Both the position numbers and the translations under genes were made by a program. Below the pieces are notes generated by a model. The model saw nothing but the letters and a program-made list of their open reading frames with translations, had not been told where the DNA came from and made no database searches. Of a stretch of 24,180 nucleotides of DNA, positions 1 through 24,093 are shown piece by piece. This DNA is from a virus. Where the stretch lies: positions 1 through 24,180 of the IMG/VR virus record IMGVR_UViG_3300002835_001067; one strand, written 5' to 3'. Within the stretch, counting starts at the first letter, position 1; every line of letters starts with the position of its first letter.

Positions 1-120
1 GAGAAGCCCGCGCCTGTTAAGGCTGAGAAGCCCGCGCCTGTTAAGGCTGAGAAGCCCGCGCCTGTTAAGGCTGAGAAGCCCGCGCCTGTTAAGGCTGAGA
101 AGCCTGCGCCTGTTAAGGCC
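1..120 (+). repeat. Five tandem 24-bp in-frame repeats (EKPAPVKA)
   Basis: Copies at 1-24, 25-48, 49-72 and 73-96 are identical; the fifth (97-120) differs at two third-codon positions. Each encodes EKPAPVKA in the frame of the giant gene. The array runs off the left edge, so the copy number is unknown. A Pro/Lys/Glu/Ala-rich repeat suggests an extended, flexible linker. Near-identity at the DNA level points to recent expansion by slippage or unequal recombination. Confidence 0.97.
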
Positions 121-3100
121 GCACCTAAAACGGATACGGCTGCGGCGATCAAAACCTTGGAAGCTAAGCGCGACGCAGAACTGGCGAAGTCAGAAGACCC
201 GTGGGCCGACGAGACGCCTAACCAGACCCTGATTGCCGCCCTGGAAAACCAAATCGCCAAACTTCAGCGTGGTGCGGCGGTCGAGCCTGAAACTACGGTT
301 CAAGAGGGCAATGATGTTGAAGCAACCGTTGACGCTGCGCTAACTGCGGACGAACGTCAGCTTGTTGCTAATGATCCGCAGCTTGGCAATGGTGATTACG
401 CTACCGGGCGTGAAAAGTTAATTGAATACGTCGCTGACTCGTTCATGGGCAAGTCTATCGCCCACCTTAAAAAAGCAATCCGTGACCTGATCACTAAACT
501 GAAGCACGGCGCGTTGTCTGTTATGGTTGCGTTCAACTTCAACCCGAACATACCGGTCAGCACCGTCAACATCCAAGGGGCCGAGTTTTCCGCGTCGGCG
601 TACGCTCGAACTGTAGACGTTGGGGATGCGCCGGTCCCCAACAGCGTCTTGGGTGTCGCCAACCATGCGCTTAACCGAGGCAACGGCCTGCCGTTCACCG
701 TCATCGACAAGCCAAATGCCAAGCTGTACGCGTTCCTTAAGGATGGCCGTATGGTAGGAAGCAGCTCCGTGCTGATTGGCGCGACTAAGCGCGATGCACT
801 GACGCCCAGTTGGGGAACCCAGACGCTCGATGAAATGAAAGAGACTGATAAAGTGACGCCAGCAGGCGTGTTCACCGGCCGTTTTAGCCTAAGTAGTGAG
901 TACGGCTCTACTATCAGCCTAGAAGAAACGGAGTCTCCTTCGACCTTCGTGGCCATCCACCGTACATATCTCGGCACTCCTAGCGAAAACCGTCTAGCGC
1001 GTTACGCAACACCAACGCCTGAAGACAACCGGGTGTCGTATGGGTGTATTAACGTCCCAAGCAGCTTCTACGACAACGTATTAACGCTTAATTTCAAGGG
1101 GAAATCGCAGATATATGTGATGCCCGACAACTCTGACGCCAGAGCGTTTTTCAATATACAAGACACCCGTACGGTCAGTACCGGCGGCAAGACCGAGACT
1201 GCCACAGAACCTGCACGCGGCGACGTAGTTGGTAAGGAAGAAACGGTCGATGAAGACGCCCCCTTAAGCCGCAAAATCGCCCGCAAGGAGACGGACAAAA
1301 AGCCGCGTTACACTTCTGCGTTAGAACTAGGTACAGATCTTGTTAAAGAGTTCGGGGTTGGCGCAATCAAGGCCGCAGTTGATGCAGGTCGCCTAAAAGT
1401 CTACGATTCGGAGACGGACCCGCGCATGTCTGAGCGTGACCGTGCGGCTATTGAGTGGGCGAAAAAGAACGGCGGGGGGGACCCAAGCGGGTTCTACCAA
1501 CCGAAGGGGGACTACGTCGTCCTCATTGCTAATAACACGGCGCGTACCGACGGCGTTAAGGCCGCTGTTCATGAAGCGGGCGTGCACGCAGGCTGGAAGG
1601 CTATCCTCGGGGATGCGGCGTACGCCAGGGTAATGAAGCAGCTCGACGACGCCGTGAAGTCCACAGAAGTCTCCAAGTTCAACACCGCTGCAAAAGAAGC
1701 AGACGCCGCCGCGCAGGAGCGCGCCGCCCTGCCGGAGCATATCCCGGAAGAGCGCCTTGCATACCTGTCTGAGCGATACTCCGATTTACCGCTGGTTAAA
1801 CGCGTGCTAGCTCAGCTCCGTAACTGGGCACGAGCCCACGGCCTCAACATCGACTTCACGGCAGACGATCTGGCAGTAATGGCGCGTGACATCGCCGATA
1901 AGTGGATGACGCAAGGTGGTCGCAAAACCGATGGCGCTCCGATGCTGAGAACGGAAGGGGCGGCGCCTGATGTAGACACGACGGCCCCGATTGGTAGCCA
2001 GCGTTTGCAACGCATGGGGCGCAGTTTACCTAGCGACGATCGGCGTACGCTTTCAGACCAGATTCGTGACATCAACGCGGTGCACGCGGACCCGAAAGCG
2101 GCGGCCAGCAAGCTATACGACAAACTGATGACCAAGTTGGACAAGGCGTATGCGTTCGAGGAAGGCATCCGTGGGGCGTTGAAGCGTGCGTTTGGAGACG
2201 GCGCAAAGTACGCGGAAGAGGTTACTAAGCTAGGCATCATCGCGCAAATCGGACATATCCCTGCTGTGGCTGACGTGGCTATGGAGCGCGGTGGCTATAG
2301 ATACAACCCCGACGCATTCGTGTTCGAAGCAACGGACAGCGATGCAAACTTCAAGCGGCTGTACGACATGGTGCTGCGTATGGCCAAAACGCACAATATC
2401 TCAAACGATGAGGCGAGCGCGTACGCAAGCGCCGCGCTAGAAGCGCGTAGACAGTCTGGAATCAACAAGGTTCGTGCGGAGAAACTAGCTCTAGCAGGCT
2501 CGCTTGAGGCCACCGGCAAACGGGCGAACATCAAAAAGGCCAAAGAGATTCGTGATAAGTGGGAAGAGATGCGGTCGCACATGACTGAGGCCGACATCGC
2601 CGAAGGCTTGAAGCTATTTGGAGACTACCCTGAAATCGCGGAGATCGAGGCTCTCAAGAATGACATCCGCGCATGGGTCGTTGATGCGTTGGTGCGTTCT
2701 GGTTTCTGGACACGCGATCAAGCTACGTCGATGCTCGATAACGCTGACTGGGTTCCGTTCAACCGGGAGTTCAACGAGGACGAAACGTTCTCGATGGAGC
2801 AGTACCACACCTATGTGCAGGGGCTACAGACCGACTTTAAGCAGAAGCGGTACATTGGCTCTGAGCGCGGCGTCAAAAACGTGATCGACAACTTCGAGCG
2901 CTGGACGCACACGGCGCTAACTCGCGGTATGCGGAATCAAGCGACTGCGGCGCTGCTGAAAGACGCAGTTAAATATGGTCTGGCTGAAACTAGCGGCAAG
3001 CCCGGCAGGTTCGATGCGAACACGACGGCGCACTACTACGAAAACGGCAAAGTAAACTACGTGCGGTTTGATGACCCCCTGCAAGCCGCGCTGTTTACTT

Positions 3101-4701
3101 CCGGTTTTGCTACGCCACCGGTATCTAAGTTGCTCCAGCATTTCAACACGCTGTTCCGTAACTCGATCGTTGCTACGCCTACGTTCTCGGCAGCGCAGCT
3201 TATTAAAGACCCGTGGGACGCCATTAAGCGGTCTGGTCTCCCCCCGGAGTACGCCCTGCGCATCGAGAAGTATGCGTTGGAGGAAATGGCGGCGATGCTG
3301 CGTGGGGAGACCACAGCGACACGCGAGCTGCTGACTAAACGGGGGCTGGTGGGTGCAGCTACTGACCTCGCGGCAGTGCGCCGGGAAGAGCTGAAAAACG
3401 CGATCGGCTATAAAGCCGGTCAGTCTGAAGCGCACAGTAAGCTCGGAAAGATACATGAGCGCGCGGTTAACGCGGGCTTGCGTGGGTCGATGTATTCGGA
3501 TAATGCGGTTCGCCAAGCGGTGTACCGCGCTGCGATCGACGCGGGTGAGACTGATGCGTCCGCTACCAAACTGGCGGCTGACGTTATTAACTTCCGGCGG
3601 CAGTTGGGCGACAGTGACGCGCTGAAAATGATGGCCGCGTACGTGCCGTTCGCGGGCGCAGCTATGGCGGCGACGCGTGCTTCCCTGATGGCTATAGCTG
3701 GTAAAGGTGGTGCGCGCAGCGACATGGAAGGTCGGCTCCGTTACGCGAAACTTGTGGCGACGACTACGGCGATCTCAACCCTGTTTGCTATGTTGGCTGG
3801 TGACGACGACGAGTACAAAGCGATGTCCATCGAGCAGCGGGCCCGTCAGATCACGATACCTGGGTTTGGCGGGTTTGGTATCCCCCGCCGGGTTAGTATC
3901 GAGTCGCTCCCGGAGATCATGGCCGAGATCACGCTCAACCAGATGTCAGACAACGCCAAAGACTCGCGTACCGTCCGTCGCGCAGTGGCGGGTATTTTGC
4001 ACGAGTCGCTCGTTCCAGTACCGGCACCGATGCCTGCTCCGATTAAGACCGCCGTCGAGGAGATGACGGACTACAACTTCTTCACCGGAGCGCCTGTCGT
4101 TGGAGCGCGGTTGAAACAGCAGGAAGCCTTCTTGCAGTACGGTGAGGGCACGAGTGAGTTTGCAAAGATGATGGGGTCTCTCGCCGACGCGGCTGGGTTA
4201 CCCAACGCAATATCTCCGAAGCGAGTAGACCATGTTATTCACGGGATGCTGGGTGTAACTGGCTCGATGGCGCTGCTCTTATCAAACATCGCGCTGGGTT
4301 CGCGGGAGTCAATGTCGGTCAAAGACATGGCAGCGTCTATCCCGGGCTTGACGATGCCGGGGGCTAAGGAGTTCAACAACGCTACGCGTAACGAGCTGTA
4401 TGACTGGATGGACAAGATCAACGAAGTGGTTGAGACAGCTAACCGGTTGAAGCGCGAAGGGCGAGTCGAGGACTACCAAGCGTACATGCAAGAGCACCAG
4501 AAGGAGCTCCAGTACAAGACTTCGGTGAACCAGATCGAACTCCAGTTGTCGAAAATCCGTCAGAGGATGGGCGTCGTGCGGGCTAGTAACACGATGTCCG
4601 GCGATGAGAAGAAATCCGAGATCGACCGGTTGAAGACAATCGAACTGCGGTACATCAACAACCTTAACGTTGCGGAGAAGCGTAAGACTGTATTTGAGTA
4701 A
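1..4701 (+). CDS. Giant virion polyprotein (probable DNA-ejection protein), 5' truncated
   Basis: The frame is open from base 1 (1566 residues visible), so the true start lies left of the window; the TTG at 157 is not a credible start. In order: EKPAPVKA octapeptide repeats (residues 1-40); an L,D-transpeptidase-like domain (about 235-378) with H320 and the motif SYGCIN (catalytic Cys 349); a metallopeptidase-like segment with HEAGVH (524-529) followed by EERLAYLSE; a long helical region resembling large polyvalent protein domains of the LPD38 kind; hydrophobic stretches at about 1251-1267 and 1412-1432; and a charged coiled-coil end (about 1468-1566). Size, multidomain build and position at the end of the rightward gene set suit an internal virion protein that enters the host envelope and remodels peptidoglycan. 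That role is inferred. The domain calls are firm for the transpeptidase and weaker for the rest. Confidence 0.85.
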   Translation, partial: EKPAPVKAEKPAPVKAEKPAPVKAEKPAPVKAEKPAPVKAAPKTDTAAAIKTLEAKRDAELAKSEDPWADETPNQTLIAALENQIAKLQRGAAVEPETTVQEGNDVEATVDAALTADERQLVANDPQLGNGDYATGREKLIEYVADSFMGKSIAHLKKAIRDLITKLKHGALSVMVAFNFNPNIPVSTVNIQGAEFSASAYARTVDVGDAPVPNSVLGVANHALNRGNGLPFTVIDKPNAKLYAFLKDGRMVGSSSVLIGATKRDALTPSWGTQTLDEMKETDKVTPAGVFTGRFSLSSEYGSTISLEETESPSTFVAIHRTYLGTPSENRLARYATPTPEDNRVSYGCINVPSSFYDNVLTLNFKGKSQIYVMPDNSDARAFFNIQDTRTVSTGGKTETATEPARGDVVGKEETVDEDAPLSRKIARKETDKKPRYTSALELGTDLVKEFGVGAIKAAVDAGRLKVYDSETDPRMSERDRAAIEWAKKNGGGDPSGFYQPKGDYVVLIANNTARTDGVKAAVHEAGVHAGWKAILGDAAYARVMKQLDDAVKSTEVSKFNTAAKEADAAAQERAALPEHIPEERLAYLSERYSDLPLVKRVLAQLRNWARAHGLNIDFTADDLAVMARDIADKWMTQGGRKTDGAPMLRTEGAAPDVDTTAPIGSQRLQRMGRSLPSDDRRTLSDQIRDINAVHADPKAAASKLYDKLMTKLDKAYAFEEGIRGALKRAFGDGAKYAEEVTKLGIIAQIGHIPAVADVAMERGGYRYNPDAFVFEATDSDANFKRLYDMVLRMAKTHNISNDEASAYASAALEARRQSGINKVRAEKLALAGSLEATGKRANIKKAKEIRDKWEEMRSHMTEADIAEGLKLFGDYPEIAEIEALKNDIRAWVVDALVRSGFWTRDQATSMLDNADWVPFNREFNEDETFSMEQYHTYVQGLQTDFKQKRYIGSERGVKNVIDNFERWTHTALTRGMRNQATAALLKDAVKYGLAETSGKPGRFDANTTAHYYENGKVNYVRFDDPLQAALFTSGFATPPVSKLLQHFNTLFRNSIVATPTFSAAQLIKDPWDAIKRSGLPPEYALRIEKYALEEMAAMLRGETTATRELLTKRGLVGAATDLAAVRREELKNAIGYKAGQSEAHSKLGKIHERAVNAGLRGSMYSDNAVRQAVYRAAIDAGETDASATKLAADVINFRRQLGDSDALKMMAAYVPFAGAAMAATRASLMAIAGKGGARSDMEGRLRYAKLVATTTAISTLFAMLAGDDDEYKAMSIEQRARQITIPGFGGFGIPRRVSIESLPEIMAEITLNQMSDNAKDSRTVRRAVAGILHESLVPVPAPMPAPIKTAVEEMTDYNFFTGAPVVGARLKQQEAFLQYGEGTSEFAKMMGSLADAAGLPNAISPKRVDHVIHGMLGVTGSMALLLSNIALGSRESMSVKDMAASIPGLTMPGAKEFNNATRNELYDWMDKINEVVETANRLKREGRVEDYQAYMQEHQKELQYKTSVNQIELQLSKIRQRMGVVRASNTMSGDEKKSEIDRLKTIELRYINNLNVAEKRKTVFE

Positions 4702-4787: not shown

Positions 4788-4999
4788 GAAGCCTGCGTGT
4801 CAACCTTGTCCTTCAATCTCCACGTGCGAATACCCAGCGCGCCTTGGTTGATCGCTTCTTTGCAGGTTACCGTAAGCCCTTCGCGTTTCGCCGCAGCGTG
4901 TATTGAGACCGCCATCGCCGCAGGCTTGAGCGTTGGTATGAAGAAGCTGTCCCCCACCTGCAAGCGCAGGAGGGCTTCTTCGTAGTCCCATTTAATCAT
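4781..4999 (-). CDS. Small conserved-looking phage protein (72 aa)
   Basis: Function is not recognised. The protein begins MIKWDYEEALLRLQVG and contains FFIPTLKP and GALGIRTWRL, a compact alpha/beta-looking layout of the sort found in small phage regulators or accessory proteins. A longer frame runs up to 5251, but its N-terminal part is an Arg/Ser-rich out-of-frame shadow of the primase gene. The ATG at 4999 is preferred because it overlaps the primase stop by 8 bases, typical of translational coupling. It is the last gene of the leftward operon. Confidence 0.75.
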   Translation of the reverse strand: MIKWDYEEALLRLQVGDSFFIPTLKPAAMAVSIHAAAKREGLTVTCKEAINQGALGIRTWRLKDKVDTQASE

Positions 5000-7796
5000 T
5001 GTTGAGCGTCGCCATAGACTCGCGCAGATCCCCTGCGATCGAGAATTCGAATACATCGACGGCTGGCGCAACCATACCCGTTCCGCTAGCCATACGCTTC
5101 TTGACCGTACCCTTGTACGTGAAGTCTGCGGAGCGAGACCGCAACGAGCCGTCCAAGTCGATCTGGCGCTTGACGCAGTATTCCTTGAAGTCCTTCTTGG
5201 GGATAAACATCGTCGAGGAATCGGCCTCGAACCGGGCGGAGATGCGCCCAACCGCAGGCTTGATGACGTTGGTCATGGTTATCGGGTTCACCTTGTTCAC
5301 GTCCACGACCAGAACGCTCCCGAAGTTGTCCGACAGGTACTCGCCTAGGGCATCGGAGGACGACACCACATGCTCCTTGACCACACGCCGTTGTTGCTTG
5401 ATATGATCGACCGCCCAGTCGAACACGGCGTCCATGTTGTAGTCGTTCAGCCCGATTTTTTGTGCGATGTGACCGCCGACTAGATTGCACGCCGTGGCGT
5501 GGAACCAGAACCTCTCTTTGATCTGGCCCCCAGCGGCTTCGATGAGCTTATCCACCGTGCGGTTAATCCACAGGGGTATCTTGCTGTAGCTGTTGATGAG
5601 CGCCTGTGCATAGAGCGGGCCCGCCACGCCATAGTTGGTGTTAAGCGAGTTGAGCATGGCTTGCGCGTCATCGACGGCGATCATGGCGATTTTGAACTCC
5701 ATCACGCGCATCTGCTCGCCTTCGGACGTGGCCTTGTTGGAAGCCAGTTTGTCTACGATTGACGCGTTACCCGTCGATACCGCGATGGTGCTCCATCGTG
5801 TGTTGTTGACCCGCTCCATGTTGGCATCGGCACGCATACGGTTGCGGCCCCGGCCATGCGAGATCGCGTAGGCTAAGTCCGACAAGTCTTCCGGCCTAGA
5901 GTTAGTCATCTCATCGAGCGTGATCGGAAGCGAGTTCATAATGCCCATACGATGCTGCTTCGCCGCTACGGTGTCTTTCTGCAAGAGCACGAGCTCGTCG
6001 GGGTGACCCCAGACGCTGTTAATCAACCGCAGGATCGACGTCTTACCTGTGCCGGAGTCGGTGTTCACCAGACTGACTAACGCCCCCGCTGAGCCCGTGA
6101 AGTTCATAAGCGGGGCACCGAACGCAGACATCAGTGCAAACACCTGAGCTTCGCTTCCGCTCGTCTTGGTGTACATGTTAAACACCCGACGCCACTCAGA
6201 CAGATCGCCCACGGGCTGTAGCAACGGGGCCAGTAGCTCGGTGACGCTGGACGATGGGGAGTGCCGCACGTCTTTTCCGCTAATCTCTGCACTACCGAGA
6301 ATGAACTTAGTGTGCCGGTCGGCCCATCCGAACTGCGTGCGGGCTTCTTCAGCCTTAAGCTGGTTGCGCAGCATTTTCACGTACGCTGTCGTATATGCCA
6401 TAAGATTCTCCATGCCTTTTTTGGAGGCGACCACTCCTTTTTCGCTCATGATGTCGCGGAACTTGTCGAACGATTGAATGTGCTTCAGCGGGACTGCAAA
6501 CTCGGAGACCGCATCGTGCGGCGGGTGCAGCCTTAACACGGCGCATACACCATGCTCCGGGTCTGTCACGCGCTTCACCACGTAGAAGTCGTCTTCACAG
6601 ACGGGGACTTCCTCAAACTCGCCGTTGGCCATCCGGTCTCTCCGGTACACCCCACCGGCCTGACCCCTGAAATACCCGAAGGGTACGTCGTAGGCTACTC
6701 GCGCTATGCCGTCGCCGGAAGTGCCGTCTGATTCGTCTGGTGTGATCTCCGCCGCTGGGGCTTCGATGACTACACGGCCTAGCTGGATCGGCGACGTGAC
6801 CGTGTGCTTACAACCCTCGCAGAGTTTCGTACTGTTCCCACTCTCTATGCGGTACCACGCGCACGTGCGCGGGCCCATCGACTCCCGTGCTTCGTCCGCC
6901 TTCTCCTCCGTGTCGGTGTAGTCGTAGTTCGGGTGCCCTTTTGACACCTTGTGGATAGCCGTGTCTGCGTCTGAACACCGGCTCGCTATAGTCAGCACGG
7001 CCAACCATGCGTCGTACGACTGATCCTTGGCGTTCTCAAGCGCGTCTTTTATCTGCGCACAGCCTTCACCCTTTAAGCTCAGCCGAGCGATCTTCCCGAA
7101 GTTGGATTGGTAGTTACCAAGCAGTGCCTGTGTAGTCGCATCCGCGCGCCAGTTACGTTTGTCGGTTGTGGCGACCATGTAAGGCTTGACGGCGGCTTGC
7201 ATCTGCTCGAGCGTGATGTGCACCCCAGACTGCAACAACACCACAGCCAGCGGGTTCTCCTTGTCCTTGAAGTTACGCGTGCCCGGCACACGGAGTATGC
7301 GAGCCGCATCAGATGGCACAGCCGGGTCGATGACGAGCCCTAGCTGAAGCGCAGCCCGCTTGAACGCGCGTGCTACCGGACGCCACTCATCCCGAGTGAC
7401 ATCGTTGTCCATCAGCCAGTATACGTGTATCCCGCGCCCCGAGTCGATAATGTACGGACGCGGCAGGCCCAGCGTTTTACTGAACTCTTTAAGCGCGAGG
7501 ACCGCGTCGCTCTTGGTCTCGTAGCCCTTGCCTTGCTCCGCCTTTTCGACACCGCAGTCGATGTCTAGGTAGAAGCTGCGCACGCGCAGGGCGTTGTCTT
7601 GGATGCGGCGCTTGTGCGCAAATGAGTGGCACGCGAAATAGGTATCGTGCCCAGACTCATCGAATTCTTTTGCCGCCTCTAAAAGGCTGGCTATTCCAGT
7701 TACGAACCGAGGTTTGACAACCTCGTCCTTGATACCGACCGCACATAAATAACCTTCGGTCGGTAGGGCTGTCTCCAAAAATGAATGCGTATTCAC
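4992..7796 (-). CDS. AEP-type primase fused to a helicase (934 aa)
   Basis: This is probably the phage's replicative primase-helicase. The N-terminal part carries archaeo-eukaryotic primase hallmarks: FYLDID with D78 and D80 (metal-binding DxD), SGRGIHVYW with H124, and ARILRVPGTRNFKDK at about 166-178. A Cys cluster (C312, C326, C329, H331) may bind zinc. The C-terminal part is an ATPase like DUF927-type helicases: Walker A DSGTGKT at 580-586, Walker B ITLDEM at 625-630, and a downstream HGRGRNRM segment. The start is a GTG; no ATG, GTG or TTG in this frame lies between it and the upstream in-frame stop, and the ribosome site is weak (GGTGAG). The fusion does the job done by TOPRIM-based gp4 in T7-like phages. 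Confidence 0.9.
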   Translation of the reverse strand: MNTHSFLETALPTEGYLCAVGIKDEVVKPRFVTGIASLLEAAKEFDESGHDTYFACHSFAHKRRIQDNALRVRSFYLDIDCGVEKAEQGKGYETKSDAVLALKEFSKTLGLPRPYIIDSGRGIHVYWLMDNDVTRDEWRPVARAFKRAALQLGLVIDPAVPSDAARILRVPGTRNFKDKENPLAVVLLQSGVHITLEQMQAAVKPYMVATTDKRNWRADATTQALLGNYQSNFGKIARLSLKGEGCAQIKDALENAKDQSYDAWLAVLTIASRCSDADTAIHKVSKGHPNYDYTDTEEKADEARESMGPRTCAWYRIESGNSTKLCEGCKHTVTSPIQLGRVVIEAPAAEITPDESDGTSGDGIARVAYDVPFGYFRGQAGGVYRRDRMANGEFEEVPVCEDDFYVVKRVTDPEHGVCAVLRLHPPHDAVSEFAVPLKHIQSFDKFRDIMSEKGVVASKKGMENLMAYTTAYVKMLRNQLKAEEARTQFGWADRHTKFILGSAEISGKDVRHSPSSSVTELLAPLLQPVGDLSEWRRVFNMYTKTSGSEAQVFALMSAFGAPLMNFTGSAGALVSLVNTDSGTGKTSILRLINSVWGHPDELVLLQKDTVAAKQHRMGIMNSLPITLDEMTNSRPEDLSDLAYAISHGRGRNRMRADANMERVNNTRWSTIAVSTGNASIVDKLASNKATSEGEQMRVMEFKIAMIAVDDAQAMLNSLNTNYGVAGPLYAQALINSYSKIPLWINRTVDKLIEAAGGQIKERFWFHATACNLVGGHIAQKIGLNDYNMDAVFDWAVDHIKQQRRVVKEHVVSSSDALGEYLSDNFGSVLVVDVNKVNPITMTNVIKPAVGRISARFEADSSTMFIPKKDFKEYCVKRQIDLDGSLRSRSADFTYKGTVKKRMASGTGMVAPAVDVFEFSIAGDLRESMATLNND

Positions 7797-22606: not shown

Positions 22607-23743
22607 TCACGCCTCCATGCGAACGGTTACGCCATACGGCGCGGTAATGTTACTGGTGATAGCGAACAGCGTCGGGCACTCAAGCGGCGCACCCCAATCG
22701 CTAACATACCCATCGGTCAGCGCGATGACGCACTCCGGCATAAGGTTATTGCCGTGAATGTATTTGCCTACACACCTGAAGCTGGTGCCGCCCCTGCCTA
22801 CGGGAATAAGGGCAGAGGCAAGCCCGGTGTAGTCACCCTCGAACTCTTGCACCCCGCATACCGTGGCATCCCACCATAGTAAGGTCAGCTTGCTAGGCGC
22901 CATCGTGTCACAGATGGACACAAGCTCAGATGCGAACTCAGATAGCTCACGCTCCCGGATAGACCCCGAAGTGTCGATCGCCACGATGAGCTCACCCATA
23001 GATTCGGAATACATACTTGGCATATACACGCCTTGATGCAAGTGCCTACGGTTAGGGCGCCGCCATGTAGAAGCGTCTCGCCCGTTGGTGACGCTCGTCA
23101 CGAAGTCGCGCAGTGCCTCACGCCAATTAACCTTGGGTTCTAGCACCTCAAGCACACCACGGGGCAAGTTACCGTTGAGCTTGCCCGCTAATATCGCACC
23201 TTGCCGGGTTGCAACTTCGATCATCTTGTCACGCTCCCGTTGTTCTTCAGGCGTAACCTCTTGCCCCCATCCGTGCGCATCCATAGGCTCGGGGTTGTCA
23301 CTCGCACCCTTACCCTTACCGCGTTTTCCCAGTGCCTCGAATACTTCTTTAGTGGACATATTCCGGTACTGCGCATCAAGAAGCGCGGAGTCGATCACGC
23401 TCGCAACCGTCTCGTTGGGGTCAAGGTCAGCGATCATAAGGTTGACCACATAATCCGCCGCCATGTTAGCCCGCGTAGCATCGGTCTTGAACAGCGATGT
23501 CCACACCGTGAGCTGGCGCATCAGCTTGTGGAAGTTCTCGTGCAGTACAAGGAACGCCAGCTCGTTATCCGTAAGCTTACTAATAAACTTATCACCGTAA
23601 ACCACATTCCAGCCGTCGGTGTAGGCCGTAGGGCAGTCGCTGATCGTGACATTGCCGCACGCCACGATACCGGACATGAATGCGAATTTCTCACTCCGCA
23701 TGAGTCGGACATGGGTGCGTTGGATGCGTTGTAATGGAGTCAT
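22607..23743 (-). CDS. Metallopeptidase-like / VWA-like protein (378 aa)
   Basis: The domain order matches the DUF2201-type proteins. The N-terminal putative metallopeptidase part has AFLVLHENFHKLM with the zinc motif HENFH (H68, E69, H72). A helical linker with Lys/Gly repeats follows. The C-terminal VWA-like part has VAIDTSGSI (D257, S259, S261), GRGGTSF with T320, and ALTDGYV with D344, so the MIDAS metal site is complete. Such proteins work with MoxR-type AAA+ ATPases in assembly or disassembly of complexes. AAGGAA precedes the ATG by 6 bases. The gene heads the unit 23743-20814. Confidence 0.88.
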   Translation of the reverse strand: MTPLQRIQRTHVRLMRSEKFAFMSGIVACGNVTISDCPTAYTDGWNVVYGDKFISKLTDNELAFLVLHENFHKLMRQLTVWTSLFKTDATRANMAADYVVNLMIADLDPNETVASVIDSALLDAQYRNMSTKEVFEALGKRGKGKGASDNPEPMDAHGWGQEVTPEEQRERDKMIEVATRQGAILAGKLNGNLPRGVLEVLEPKVNWREALRDFVTSVTNGRDASTWRRPNRRHLHQGVYMPSMYSESMGELIVAIDTSGSIRERELSEFASELVSICDTMAPSKLTLLWWDATVCGVQEFEGDYTGLASALIPVGRGGTSFRCVGKYIHGNNLMPECVIALTDGYVSDWGAPLECPTLFAITSNITAPYGVTVRMEA

Positions 23744-23754
23744 GGTCTTTCCTT

Positions 23755-24093
23755 TCAGGGGTTTGAAGAAAACATCGTTGCGAATTGGCCAGCTACAGTT
23801 AGTGGGTTATCGTCCACCAGCAAGACAACTAGGCTTGGGTGTTCGATGTTCTTGCTGTAGCCGGTTCCGTAGCCGTAGCCGTAGCCGTGGCCGTGGCCGT
23901 CGCCGTTGCCGTGGCCGGTTCCGTGGCCGTCGCCGAAGCCCCTGCCGTAGCCGTAGCCGTCGCCGTTGCCGTCGCCGTTGCCGTCGCCGTAGCCGTTGCC
24001 GTTGCCGTGGCCGTCGCCGTAGTCGTCGCCGTAGTCGTCGCCGTCGCCGTAGCCGTTGCCGTAGCCGTAGCCGAAGCCATCTAGTCTACGCAT
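23755..24093 (-). CDS. Gly-rich repeat protein, copy 2 (112 aa)
   Basis: After MRRLDG the protein is almost only Gly alternating with Tyr, Asp, Asn or His (residues about 6-80), then a normal, hydrophobic end: HPSLVVLLVDDNPLTVAGQF, ATMFSSNP. The repeat is an encoded hexamer array (see repeat entry). The end matches that of the partial gene upstream. Function unknown; Gly/Tyr- or Gly/Asp-rich repeats elsewhere form flexible, adhesive or calcium-binding surfaces, which is inference only here. The ATG lies two bases after the upstream stop codon. The real start could be different because its ribosome site is weak. Confidence 0.65.
   Translation of the reverse strand: MRRLDGFGYGYGNGYGDGDDYGDDYGDGHGNGNGYGDGNGDGNGDGYGYGRGFGDGHGTGHGNGDGHGHGYGYGYGTGYSKNIEHPSLVVLLVDDNPLTVAGQFATMFSSNP
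23855..24078. repeat. Hexanucleotide array (GGCNAC)n inside the Gly-rich gene
   Basis: On the coding (-) strand the unit is GGC NAC, where N is any base, repeated over about 220 bases; on the + strand it appears as GCCGTN. Because N is the first base of the second codon, each unit encodes Gly plus Tyr, Asp, Asn or His. A few units are altered (GAC or a GGA/ACC type change). Near-perfect conservation of five of the six bases with a free sixth is unusual. Confidence 0.95.

What the first reader, a model, noticed from the sequence alone, without database searches (positions are those of the whole stretch)
700..1140. L,D-transpeptidase domain inside a giant phage virion protein
The block from about residue 235 to 378 carries H320, then DNRVSYGCINVPSSFY with catalytic Cys 349, and ends QIYVMPD. 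This matches bacterial L,D-transpeptidases, including the SxGCxN motif, and looks close to Burkholderiales enzymes. Virion enzymes normally cut peptidoglycan (transglycosylases, endopeptidases). A cross-linking-type fold in an ejection protein could re-seal the wall after DNA entry, cleave existing 3-3 cross-links, or attach virion parts to the wall. The gap between H and the Cys motif is longer than the common pattern, as in the subfamily I recall.
Basis: partly seen in the sequence, partly recalled or inferred. Interest (0 to 1): 0.75.

Follow-up and report, generated by a model that had tools for sequence, protein, structure and literature searches.

The report
Wall-linking enzyme in giant phage protein
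A family of little-studied phages carries, inside one giant protein that is probably injected into the host with the DNA, an enzyme domain of the kind bacteria use to cross-link their cell wall, placed right behind what looks like a built-in export signal; this suggests that some phages edit the host wall rather than only cut it.

Summary
Window nt 685-1140 (aa 229-380 of a 5'-truncated frame of at least 1,566 aa) is a YkuD-fold L,D-transpeptidase-type domain with invariant H320 and C349. AlphaFold2 gives mean pLDDT 93, and every top PDB fold match is an L,D-transpeptidase or L,D-carboxypeptidase. Pfam alone is sub-threshold (19.3 against 23.4 bits). About 35 further phage contigs carry the domain inside proteins mostly 2,000-3,900 aa long, several fused to polyvalent-protein domains: LPD38, ART-PolyVal, InPase, RadC. 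The giant gene closes the virion gene block, next to a DNA-ejection-protein gene in several genomes. New here: in the giant proteins a basic, then hydrophobic, signal-peptide- or anchor-like segment sits about 180 residues before the Cys, and a zincin-like motif follows in most. An E. coli phage-plasmid has the same module. Bacterial relatives are secreted-looking enzymes, mostly Burkholderiales, with the same 29-residue His-Cys gap, in a separate clade. Most likely the domain acts on host peptidoglycan in the periplasm. Whether it cross-links, trims or anchors is unknown.

The parts
1..4701 (+). 3' part of the giant polyvalent-protein gene (1,566 aa in window; start lies beyond the contig end)
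   Evidence: full-length relative L002 is 2,644 aa and matches the C-terminal region at 46% identity
1..119 (+). 24-bp tandem repeat, 5 copies, coding for EKPAPVKA; linker repeat at which the contig ends
   Evidence: L002 has a comparable PKVE repeat before the module
460..546 (+). basic amphipathic helix plus hydrophobic stretch AHLKKAIRDLITKLKHGALSVMVAFNFNP (aa 154-182), signal-peptide/anchor-like, followed by AYA at nt 598-606
   Evidence: same place (offset about -163 to -190 from the Cys) in the giant phage proteins; weak in the window copy itself (mean KD 1.04)
685..1140 (+). YkuD / L,D-transpeptidase-type domain (aa 229-380)
958..960 (+). catalytic His320 (predicted)
   Evidence: invariant in 25 phage sequences, in model strand 97-100
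1045..1047 (+). catalytic Cys349 (predicted) in SYGCIN
   Evidence: invariant in 25 phage sequences
1318..1920 (+). zincin-like metallopeptidase region (aa 440-640); HEAGVH at nt 1570-1587
   Evidence: only a weak fold match to lethal-factor-type zincins, no Pfam hit
3805..4326 (+). LPD38, large polyvalent protein-associated domain 38 (aa 1269-1442)
   Evidence: Pfam E=4.4e-19
4992..7796 (-). convergent DUF927 / primase-helicase gene: start of the replication block, same order as in relatives

Best explanation
The gene encodes a phage polyvalent protein that is carried in the virion and ejected with the DNA. One of its parts is a self-contained module: an internal export/anchor-like segment, a cysteine L,D-transpeptidase-type (YkuD) domain, and in most relatives a zincin-like peptidase that could cut the module free. 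During infection the hydrophobic segment would place the YkuD domain on the periplasmic side of the inner membrane. There it would use C349 to attack the mDAP3-D-Ala4 bond of host stem peptides and transfer the acyl group to another stem (L,D cross-link or exchange) or to water (L,D-carboxypeptidase), changing the wall around the entry site. Shown by computation: fold, conserved active site, module anatomy, fusion to polyvalent domains, gene position. Inferred: virion packaging, periplasmic location, substrate and reaction.
For: Fold and conserved H/C. Fusion with LPD38, ART-PolyVal, InPase, RadC. Position as last gene of the TerL-portal-head-tail block; next to a 'DNA ejection protein' gene in several genomes. 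Separate lysozyme-type endolysin in 6 of 18 records. Signal/anchor-like segment at the same place in the giants; clearest in L033, L037 and the E. coli phage-plasmid (...AAALVGITLWNAQPVADVHA/A). Four stand-alone phage relatives have N-terminal signal-peptide-like starts and bacterial relatives are mostly single-domain with secretory-looking N-termini. LPD38 is phage-only and MPTase domains are proposed to process polyvalent proteins (PMC5512222).
Against: No proteomics or activity data. SignalP was not available; the window's own hydrophobic segment is weak, and an internal signal sequence about 1,000-2,000 residues into a protein has no well-known export route. Foldseek TM-scores to PDB entries are moderate (0.4-0.6). 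The window has HEAGVH (HExxxH) and no confirmed zincin fold. The motif spacing departs from the canonical H-x(14-17)-[ST]HGC, so the reaction may differ.
Confidence: 0.6

Rival explanations
1. Wall-strengthening variant: the domain makes L,D cross-links at the entry site, sealing the hole and making the wall resistant to lytic transglycosylases, which would limit leakage and block later phages that enter or lyse with such enzymes.
For: L,D cross-links inhibit lytic transglycosylases, including those of phages lambda and P2, but not lysozymes (PMC11390936). Where found, the phages' own endolysin is lysozyme-type. In three lineages a transglycosylase gene sits beside the giant gene (G016 and G003; E. 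coli phage-plasmid GH104).
Against: SLT-family transglycosylase genes were found in only 2 of 18 records, plus the GH104 gene of the phage-plasmid; endolysin type is unknown for the others; few enzyme molecules per virion would be delivered; transpeptidase activity is untested.
Confidence: 0.3
2. Trimming effector like Tlde1: the domain acts mainly as an L,D-carboxypeptidase/exchange enzyme that depletes tetrapeptides and weakens or re-programmes the host wall.
For: Top PDB fold matches include three L,D-carboxypeptidases, Csd6, Pgp2 and Bd1075. Tlde1a is a delivered antibacterial effector of this fold with carboxypeptidase and exchange activity (PMC9638812).
Against: The Foldseek ranking mixes transpeptidases and carboxypeptidases with similar scores; Tlde1 keeps the 14-17 spacing and was not a match in the searches made here; closest bacterial kin look like housekeeping secreted enzymes.
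Confidence: 0.25
3. Anchor: the domain joins a virion or ejected protein covalently to peptidoglycan, as some transpeptidases join lipoproteins or OutB to the wall.
For: Protein-to-wall attachment by this enzyme class is known (OutB abstract, listed; Lpp, established knowledge). The domain sits in a protein that must cross the wall.
Against: No conserved acceptor lysine or tail motif was looked for or found; nothing in the anatomy demands it.
Confidence: 0.1
4. Not delivered in the virion: the giant protein is processed in the producing cell and the YkuD fragment is exported there, for example for late wall remodelling or superinfection exclusion.
For: Stand-alone phage relatives with signal-peptide-like N-termini exist; a zincin-like motif follows the domain in most giants; P1 DdrB is processed before packaging (PMC5512222).
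Against: Gene position beside ejection-protein genes and LPD38 membership favour packaging.
Confidence: 0.15

Closest known systems
Phage-type polyvalent proteins (LPD38, ART-PolyVal, InPase; Iyer et al. 2017, PMC5512222)
   Same: Giant multidomain protein, LPD38 C-terminal region, ART/InPase partners, zincin-like neighbour, late-gene position
   Different: The text of that survey does not mention YkuD, transpeptidase, transmembrane or signal peptide; its wall enzymes are lysozyme, SpoIID-like and DD-peptidase domains
Secreted Burkholderiales-type YkuD proteins (one search set, e.g. L055, L065)
   Same: 35-41% identity, His-Cys gap 29, xxDNRISYGCINVP signature
   Different: Single-domain, chromosomal, form a separate clade (SH-aLRT 99) from the giant phage domains; activity unknown too
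Tlde1 T6SS effectors (PMC9638812)
   Same: YkuD-fold enzyme used as a delivered antibacterial weapon on peptidoglycan
   Different: Small effector with immunity protein, H-x(14-17) spacing, T6SS delivery
LDTGo 1,3-transpeptidases of Alpha-/Betaproteobacteria (PMC10864386)
   Same: YkuD domain, similar host taxa
   Different: H245-C264 spacing 19, proline-rich belt; a different subfamily
Stand-alone phage transpeptidases (Xanthomonas phage XacN1, Stenotrophomonas DLP phages)
   Same: Related YkuD sequence in phages
   Different: Short single-domain genes, not part of a giant protein
UniProt A0A8S5MBC9, 'L,D-TPase catalytic domain-containing protein', Podoviridae sp. ct53O25
   Same: Large podovirus protein already auto-named for this domain
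   Different: Automatic name only; weak fold match here (E=0.13), no study found

Membership tests
YkuD / L,D-transpeptidase fold (PF03734) | YkuD catalytic fold | tested here: met
   AF2 pLDDT 93; Foldseek top hits all YkuD-fold, probability 1.00
YkuD / L,D-transpeptidase fold (PF03734) | Pfam score above curated cut-off | tested here: inconclusive
   Window 19.3 bits, cut-off 23.4; relatives L033, L043, L032, L044 pass
YkuD / L,D-transpeptidase fold (PF03734) | Conserved catalytic His and Cys in [ST]xGC | tested here: met
   His and Cys invariant in 25 phage sequences
YkuD / L,D-transpeptidase fold (PF03734) | Canonical spacing H-x(14-17)-[ST]HGC | tested here: not met
   H320 to C349 is 29 residues and the motif is SYGC; bacterial kin share this. 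The subfamily is therefore divergent; fold membership stands on structure.
YkuD / L,D-transpeptidase fold (PF03734) | L,D-transpeptidase activity on peptidoglycan | not testable with these tools
   Needs purified protein
Phage-type polyvalent protein | Very large multidomain protein with polyvalent-associated domains | tested here: met
   LPD38 E=4.4e-19; relatives add ART-PolyVal, InPase, RadC
Phage-type polyvalent protein | Encoded among late/virion genes | tested here: met
   Relatives' contigs; in the window only the downstream side is visible
Phage-type polyvalent protein | Packaged and injected | not testable with these tools
   No virion proteomics
LDTGo LD1,3-transpeptidases | H-C spacing 19 and proline-rich belt before the domain | tested here: not met
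   Spacing 29; paper values; the belt itself was not looked for
Tlde1 effectors | Immunity gene and T6SS context, H-x(14-17) spacing | tested here: not met
   Phage late-gene context; spacing 29

The most novel reading that the evidence does not exclude
These phages inject an enzyme that builds L,D cross-links into the host wall at the entry site, using a signal sequence buried inside a giant ejected protein to reach the periplasm. The wall is thereby sealed and made resistant to transglycosylases of competing phages.
Probability: 0.25. Interest if true: 0.85.

Novelty: new variant of a known kind. Interest (0 to 1): 0.58.

Why it matters
Wall enzymes carried by virions are known as cutters. 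A conserved, recurrent transpeptidase-type domain inside giant, probably injected proteins would add wall editing to what phages do on entry. It would also link to the recent finding that L,D cross-links protect cells against transglycosylase-type phages. The E. coli phage-plasmid homologue and the intact active site make it directly testable.

Tried and rejected
Single-sequence phmmer against PDB chains gave only chance hits, and the family profile gave only sub-significant hits, several of them to YkuD proteins. NCBIfam names neither the phage nor the bacterial subfamily. hhalign of the phage alignment against four classical YkuD domains aligned only the N-terminal half (probability 26), too shallow to use. 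The antisense ORF 396-977 has no support and was ignored. Recent capture from a Burkholderiales host was considered and disfavoured: bacterial rows form their own clade, though only the 80 best bacterial loci were kept and half of those used. The endolysin reading was rejected for the relatives that have a separate lysozyme gene. LDTGo membership was rejected on spacing. No E. coli complete genome carries a near copy of the phage-plasmid gene.

Full report
The window is a 24,180-base IMG/VR virus record. Its first gene (1-4701, +) is open at the 5' end because the contig starts inside a 24-bp tandem repeat coding for EKPAPVKA. Downstream, on the other strand, lie a DUF927 primase/helicase-like gene, an SNF2-type helicase, a DNA polymerase and an exonuclease.

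The domain is real. H320, C349 and the DNRVSYGCIN motif are at the stated positions. Pfam sees YkuD at aa 234-355 below its cut-off. Scans of viral contigs found one relative with the single protein, then 44 loci with an alignment. In a 25-sequence alignment the catalytic His and Cys and ten other residues are invariant. AlphaFold2 on that alignment gives pLDDT 93 and pTM 0.88. All of the best PDB fold matches are YkuD-fold enzymes: Csd6, V. cholerae LdtA, E. faecium Ldt, Pgp2, Bd1075, LdtMt2. Among predicted viral structures the best matches are two very large uncultured-phage proteins, one named 'Large polyvalent protein associated domain-containing protein', with TM 0.84-0.87.

The surroundings define the protein. 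It carries LPD38 (E=4.4e-19). Thirty-odd relatives have the YkuD domain inside proteins mostly 2,000-3,900 aa long, with LPD38, ART-PolyVal, InPase or RadC domains in many. These are phage polyvalent proteins as defined in PMC5512222. In the contigs of relatives read end to end, the giant gene is the last of the virion block and in most faces the replication genes. Terminase, portal, head and virion proteins were confirmed by PHROGs for two of them. A 'DNA ejection protein' family gene lies one or two genes upstream in four records (G001, G008, G011, G012). The window has the same giant-then-convergent-primase order, and its C-terminal 740 residues are 46% identical to the relative in G001. 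Virion packaging is therefore likely but not shown. Isolate cousins with LPD38 (phiARM81mr, Pag-Yong1, CF418P1) show no YkuD hit, so the module is optional.

In the giant proteins a basic amphipathic stretch followed by a hydrophobic stretch lies 163-190 residues before the Cys. In L016 the automatic scan picked a neighbouring peak, but the same segment is there in the sequence. In about a third of the giants it is the most hydrophobic segment of the whole protein. In some lineages it reads like a full signal peptide: L033 ...SSNDAYA/A, L037 ...VHDARA/A, E. coli phage-plasmid ...VADVHA/A. In the window it is weaker. Stand-alone phage relatives L010, L032, L036 and L040 start with signal-peptide-like sequences, and the bacterial relatives are mostly 200-300-residue single-domain proteins with secretory-looking N-termini. 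The simplest reading, an inference, is that a secreted enzyme, signal and all, was inserted into the giant protein and its signal kept. After the domain, most giants have an HExxH or HExxxH motif. The window's HEAGVH region folds with moderate confidence and resembles lethal-factor-type zincins only weakly, the superfamily to which PMC5512222 assigns the processing peptidases of polyvalent proteins.

Origin: a genome-collection scan returned 397 relatives; the best 80 are mainly Betaproteobacteria, with some Sphingomonadales and Desulfo-type bacteria, at 35-41% identity and with the same 29-residue gap in nearly all. In a quick maximum-likelihood tree 40 bacterial rows plus one phage solo form one clade (SH-aLRT 99) and 28 of 30 giant-protein domains form another (93). 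The phage form looks like an old lineage, not a fresh host copy. Long branches and the selection of best hits limit this. Neither Pfam nor NCBIfam separates this subfamily, and no solved structure or assay of it was found.

Cultured examples are scarce. GenBank phages show only short stand-alone relatives. PLSDB holds one 60.5-kb E. coli 'plasmid' that looks like a phage-plasmid: its 2,318-aa protein has the full signal-like segment and YkuD domain, next to a GH104 transglycosylase gene and near a holin/lysozyme pair. No near copy is in 5,426 complete E. coli genomes.

Mechanism. The best-supported account is periplasmic action on host peptidoglycan by an ejected enzyme. Which reaction is open. 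Transpeptidation is attractive because L,D cross-links block transglycosylases but not lysozymes (PMC11390936), because lysozyme-type endolysins are present where found (6 of 18 records), and because a transglycosylase gene neighbours the giant in three lineages. Carboxypeptidase/exchange is equally allowed by the fold and has a precedent in the delivered effector Tlde1 (PMC9638812). Anchoring is possible. None was tested. Literature searches found no description of this domain in ejection or polyvalent proteins, within an open-access library only; one large podovirus protein already bears an automatic 'L,D-TPase' name.

Noticed in passing
window 460-606 and the same place in L002-L041: Signal-peptide/anchor-like segment buried inside giant phage proteins, immediately before the YkuD domain; not mentioned in the 2017 polyvalent-protein survey text.
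   Followed up: partly
L192:12579-20226 (CP061838.1, E. coli pSTEC648_2): A 60.5-kb record filed as an E. coli plasmid looks like a phage-plasmid with a 2,318-aa YkuD polyvalent protein beside a GH104 transglycosylase gene.
   Followed up: partly
window 23867-24078: A 212-bp hexanucleotide array (CCGTAG, 35 copies) near the right end; both contig ends lie in or near tandem repeats, probably why assembly stopped.
   Followed up: no
window 22607-23743 (-): PHROGs calls this protein an HNH endonuclease, but Pfam finds a DUF2201 putative metallopeptidase plus VWA-like domain; the PHROG name may be wrong.
   Followed up: no
L010 (IMGVR_UViG_3300045282_000087): Its stand-alone YkuD protein groups inside the bacterial clade: a recent transfer or a bacterial contig filed as viral.
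   Followed up: no
G007 contig ends (593-1768 and 67084-68259): The same ORFs recur at both ends, so this record is probably a complete genome of about 66.5 kb although it is classed as linear.
   Followed up: partly
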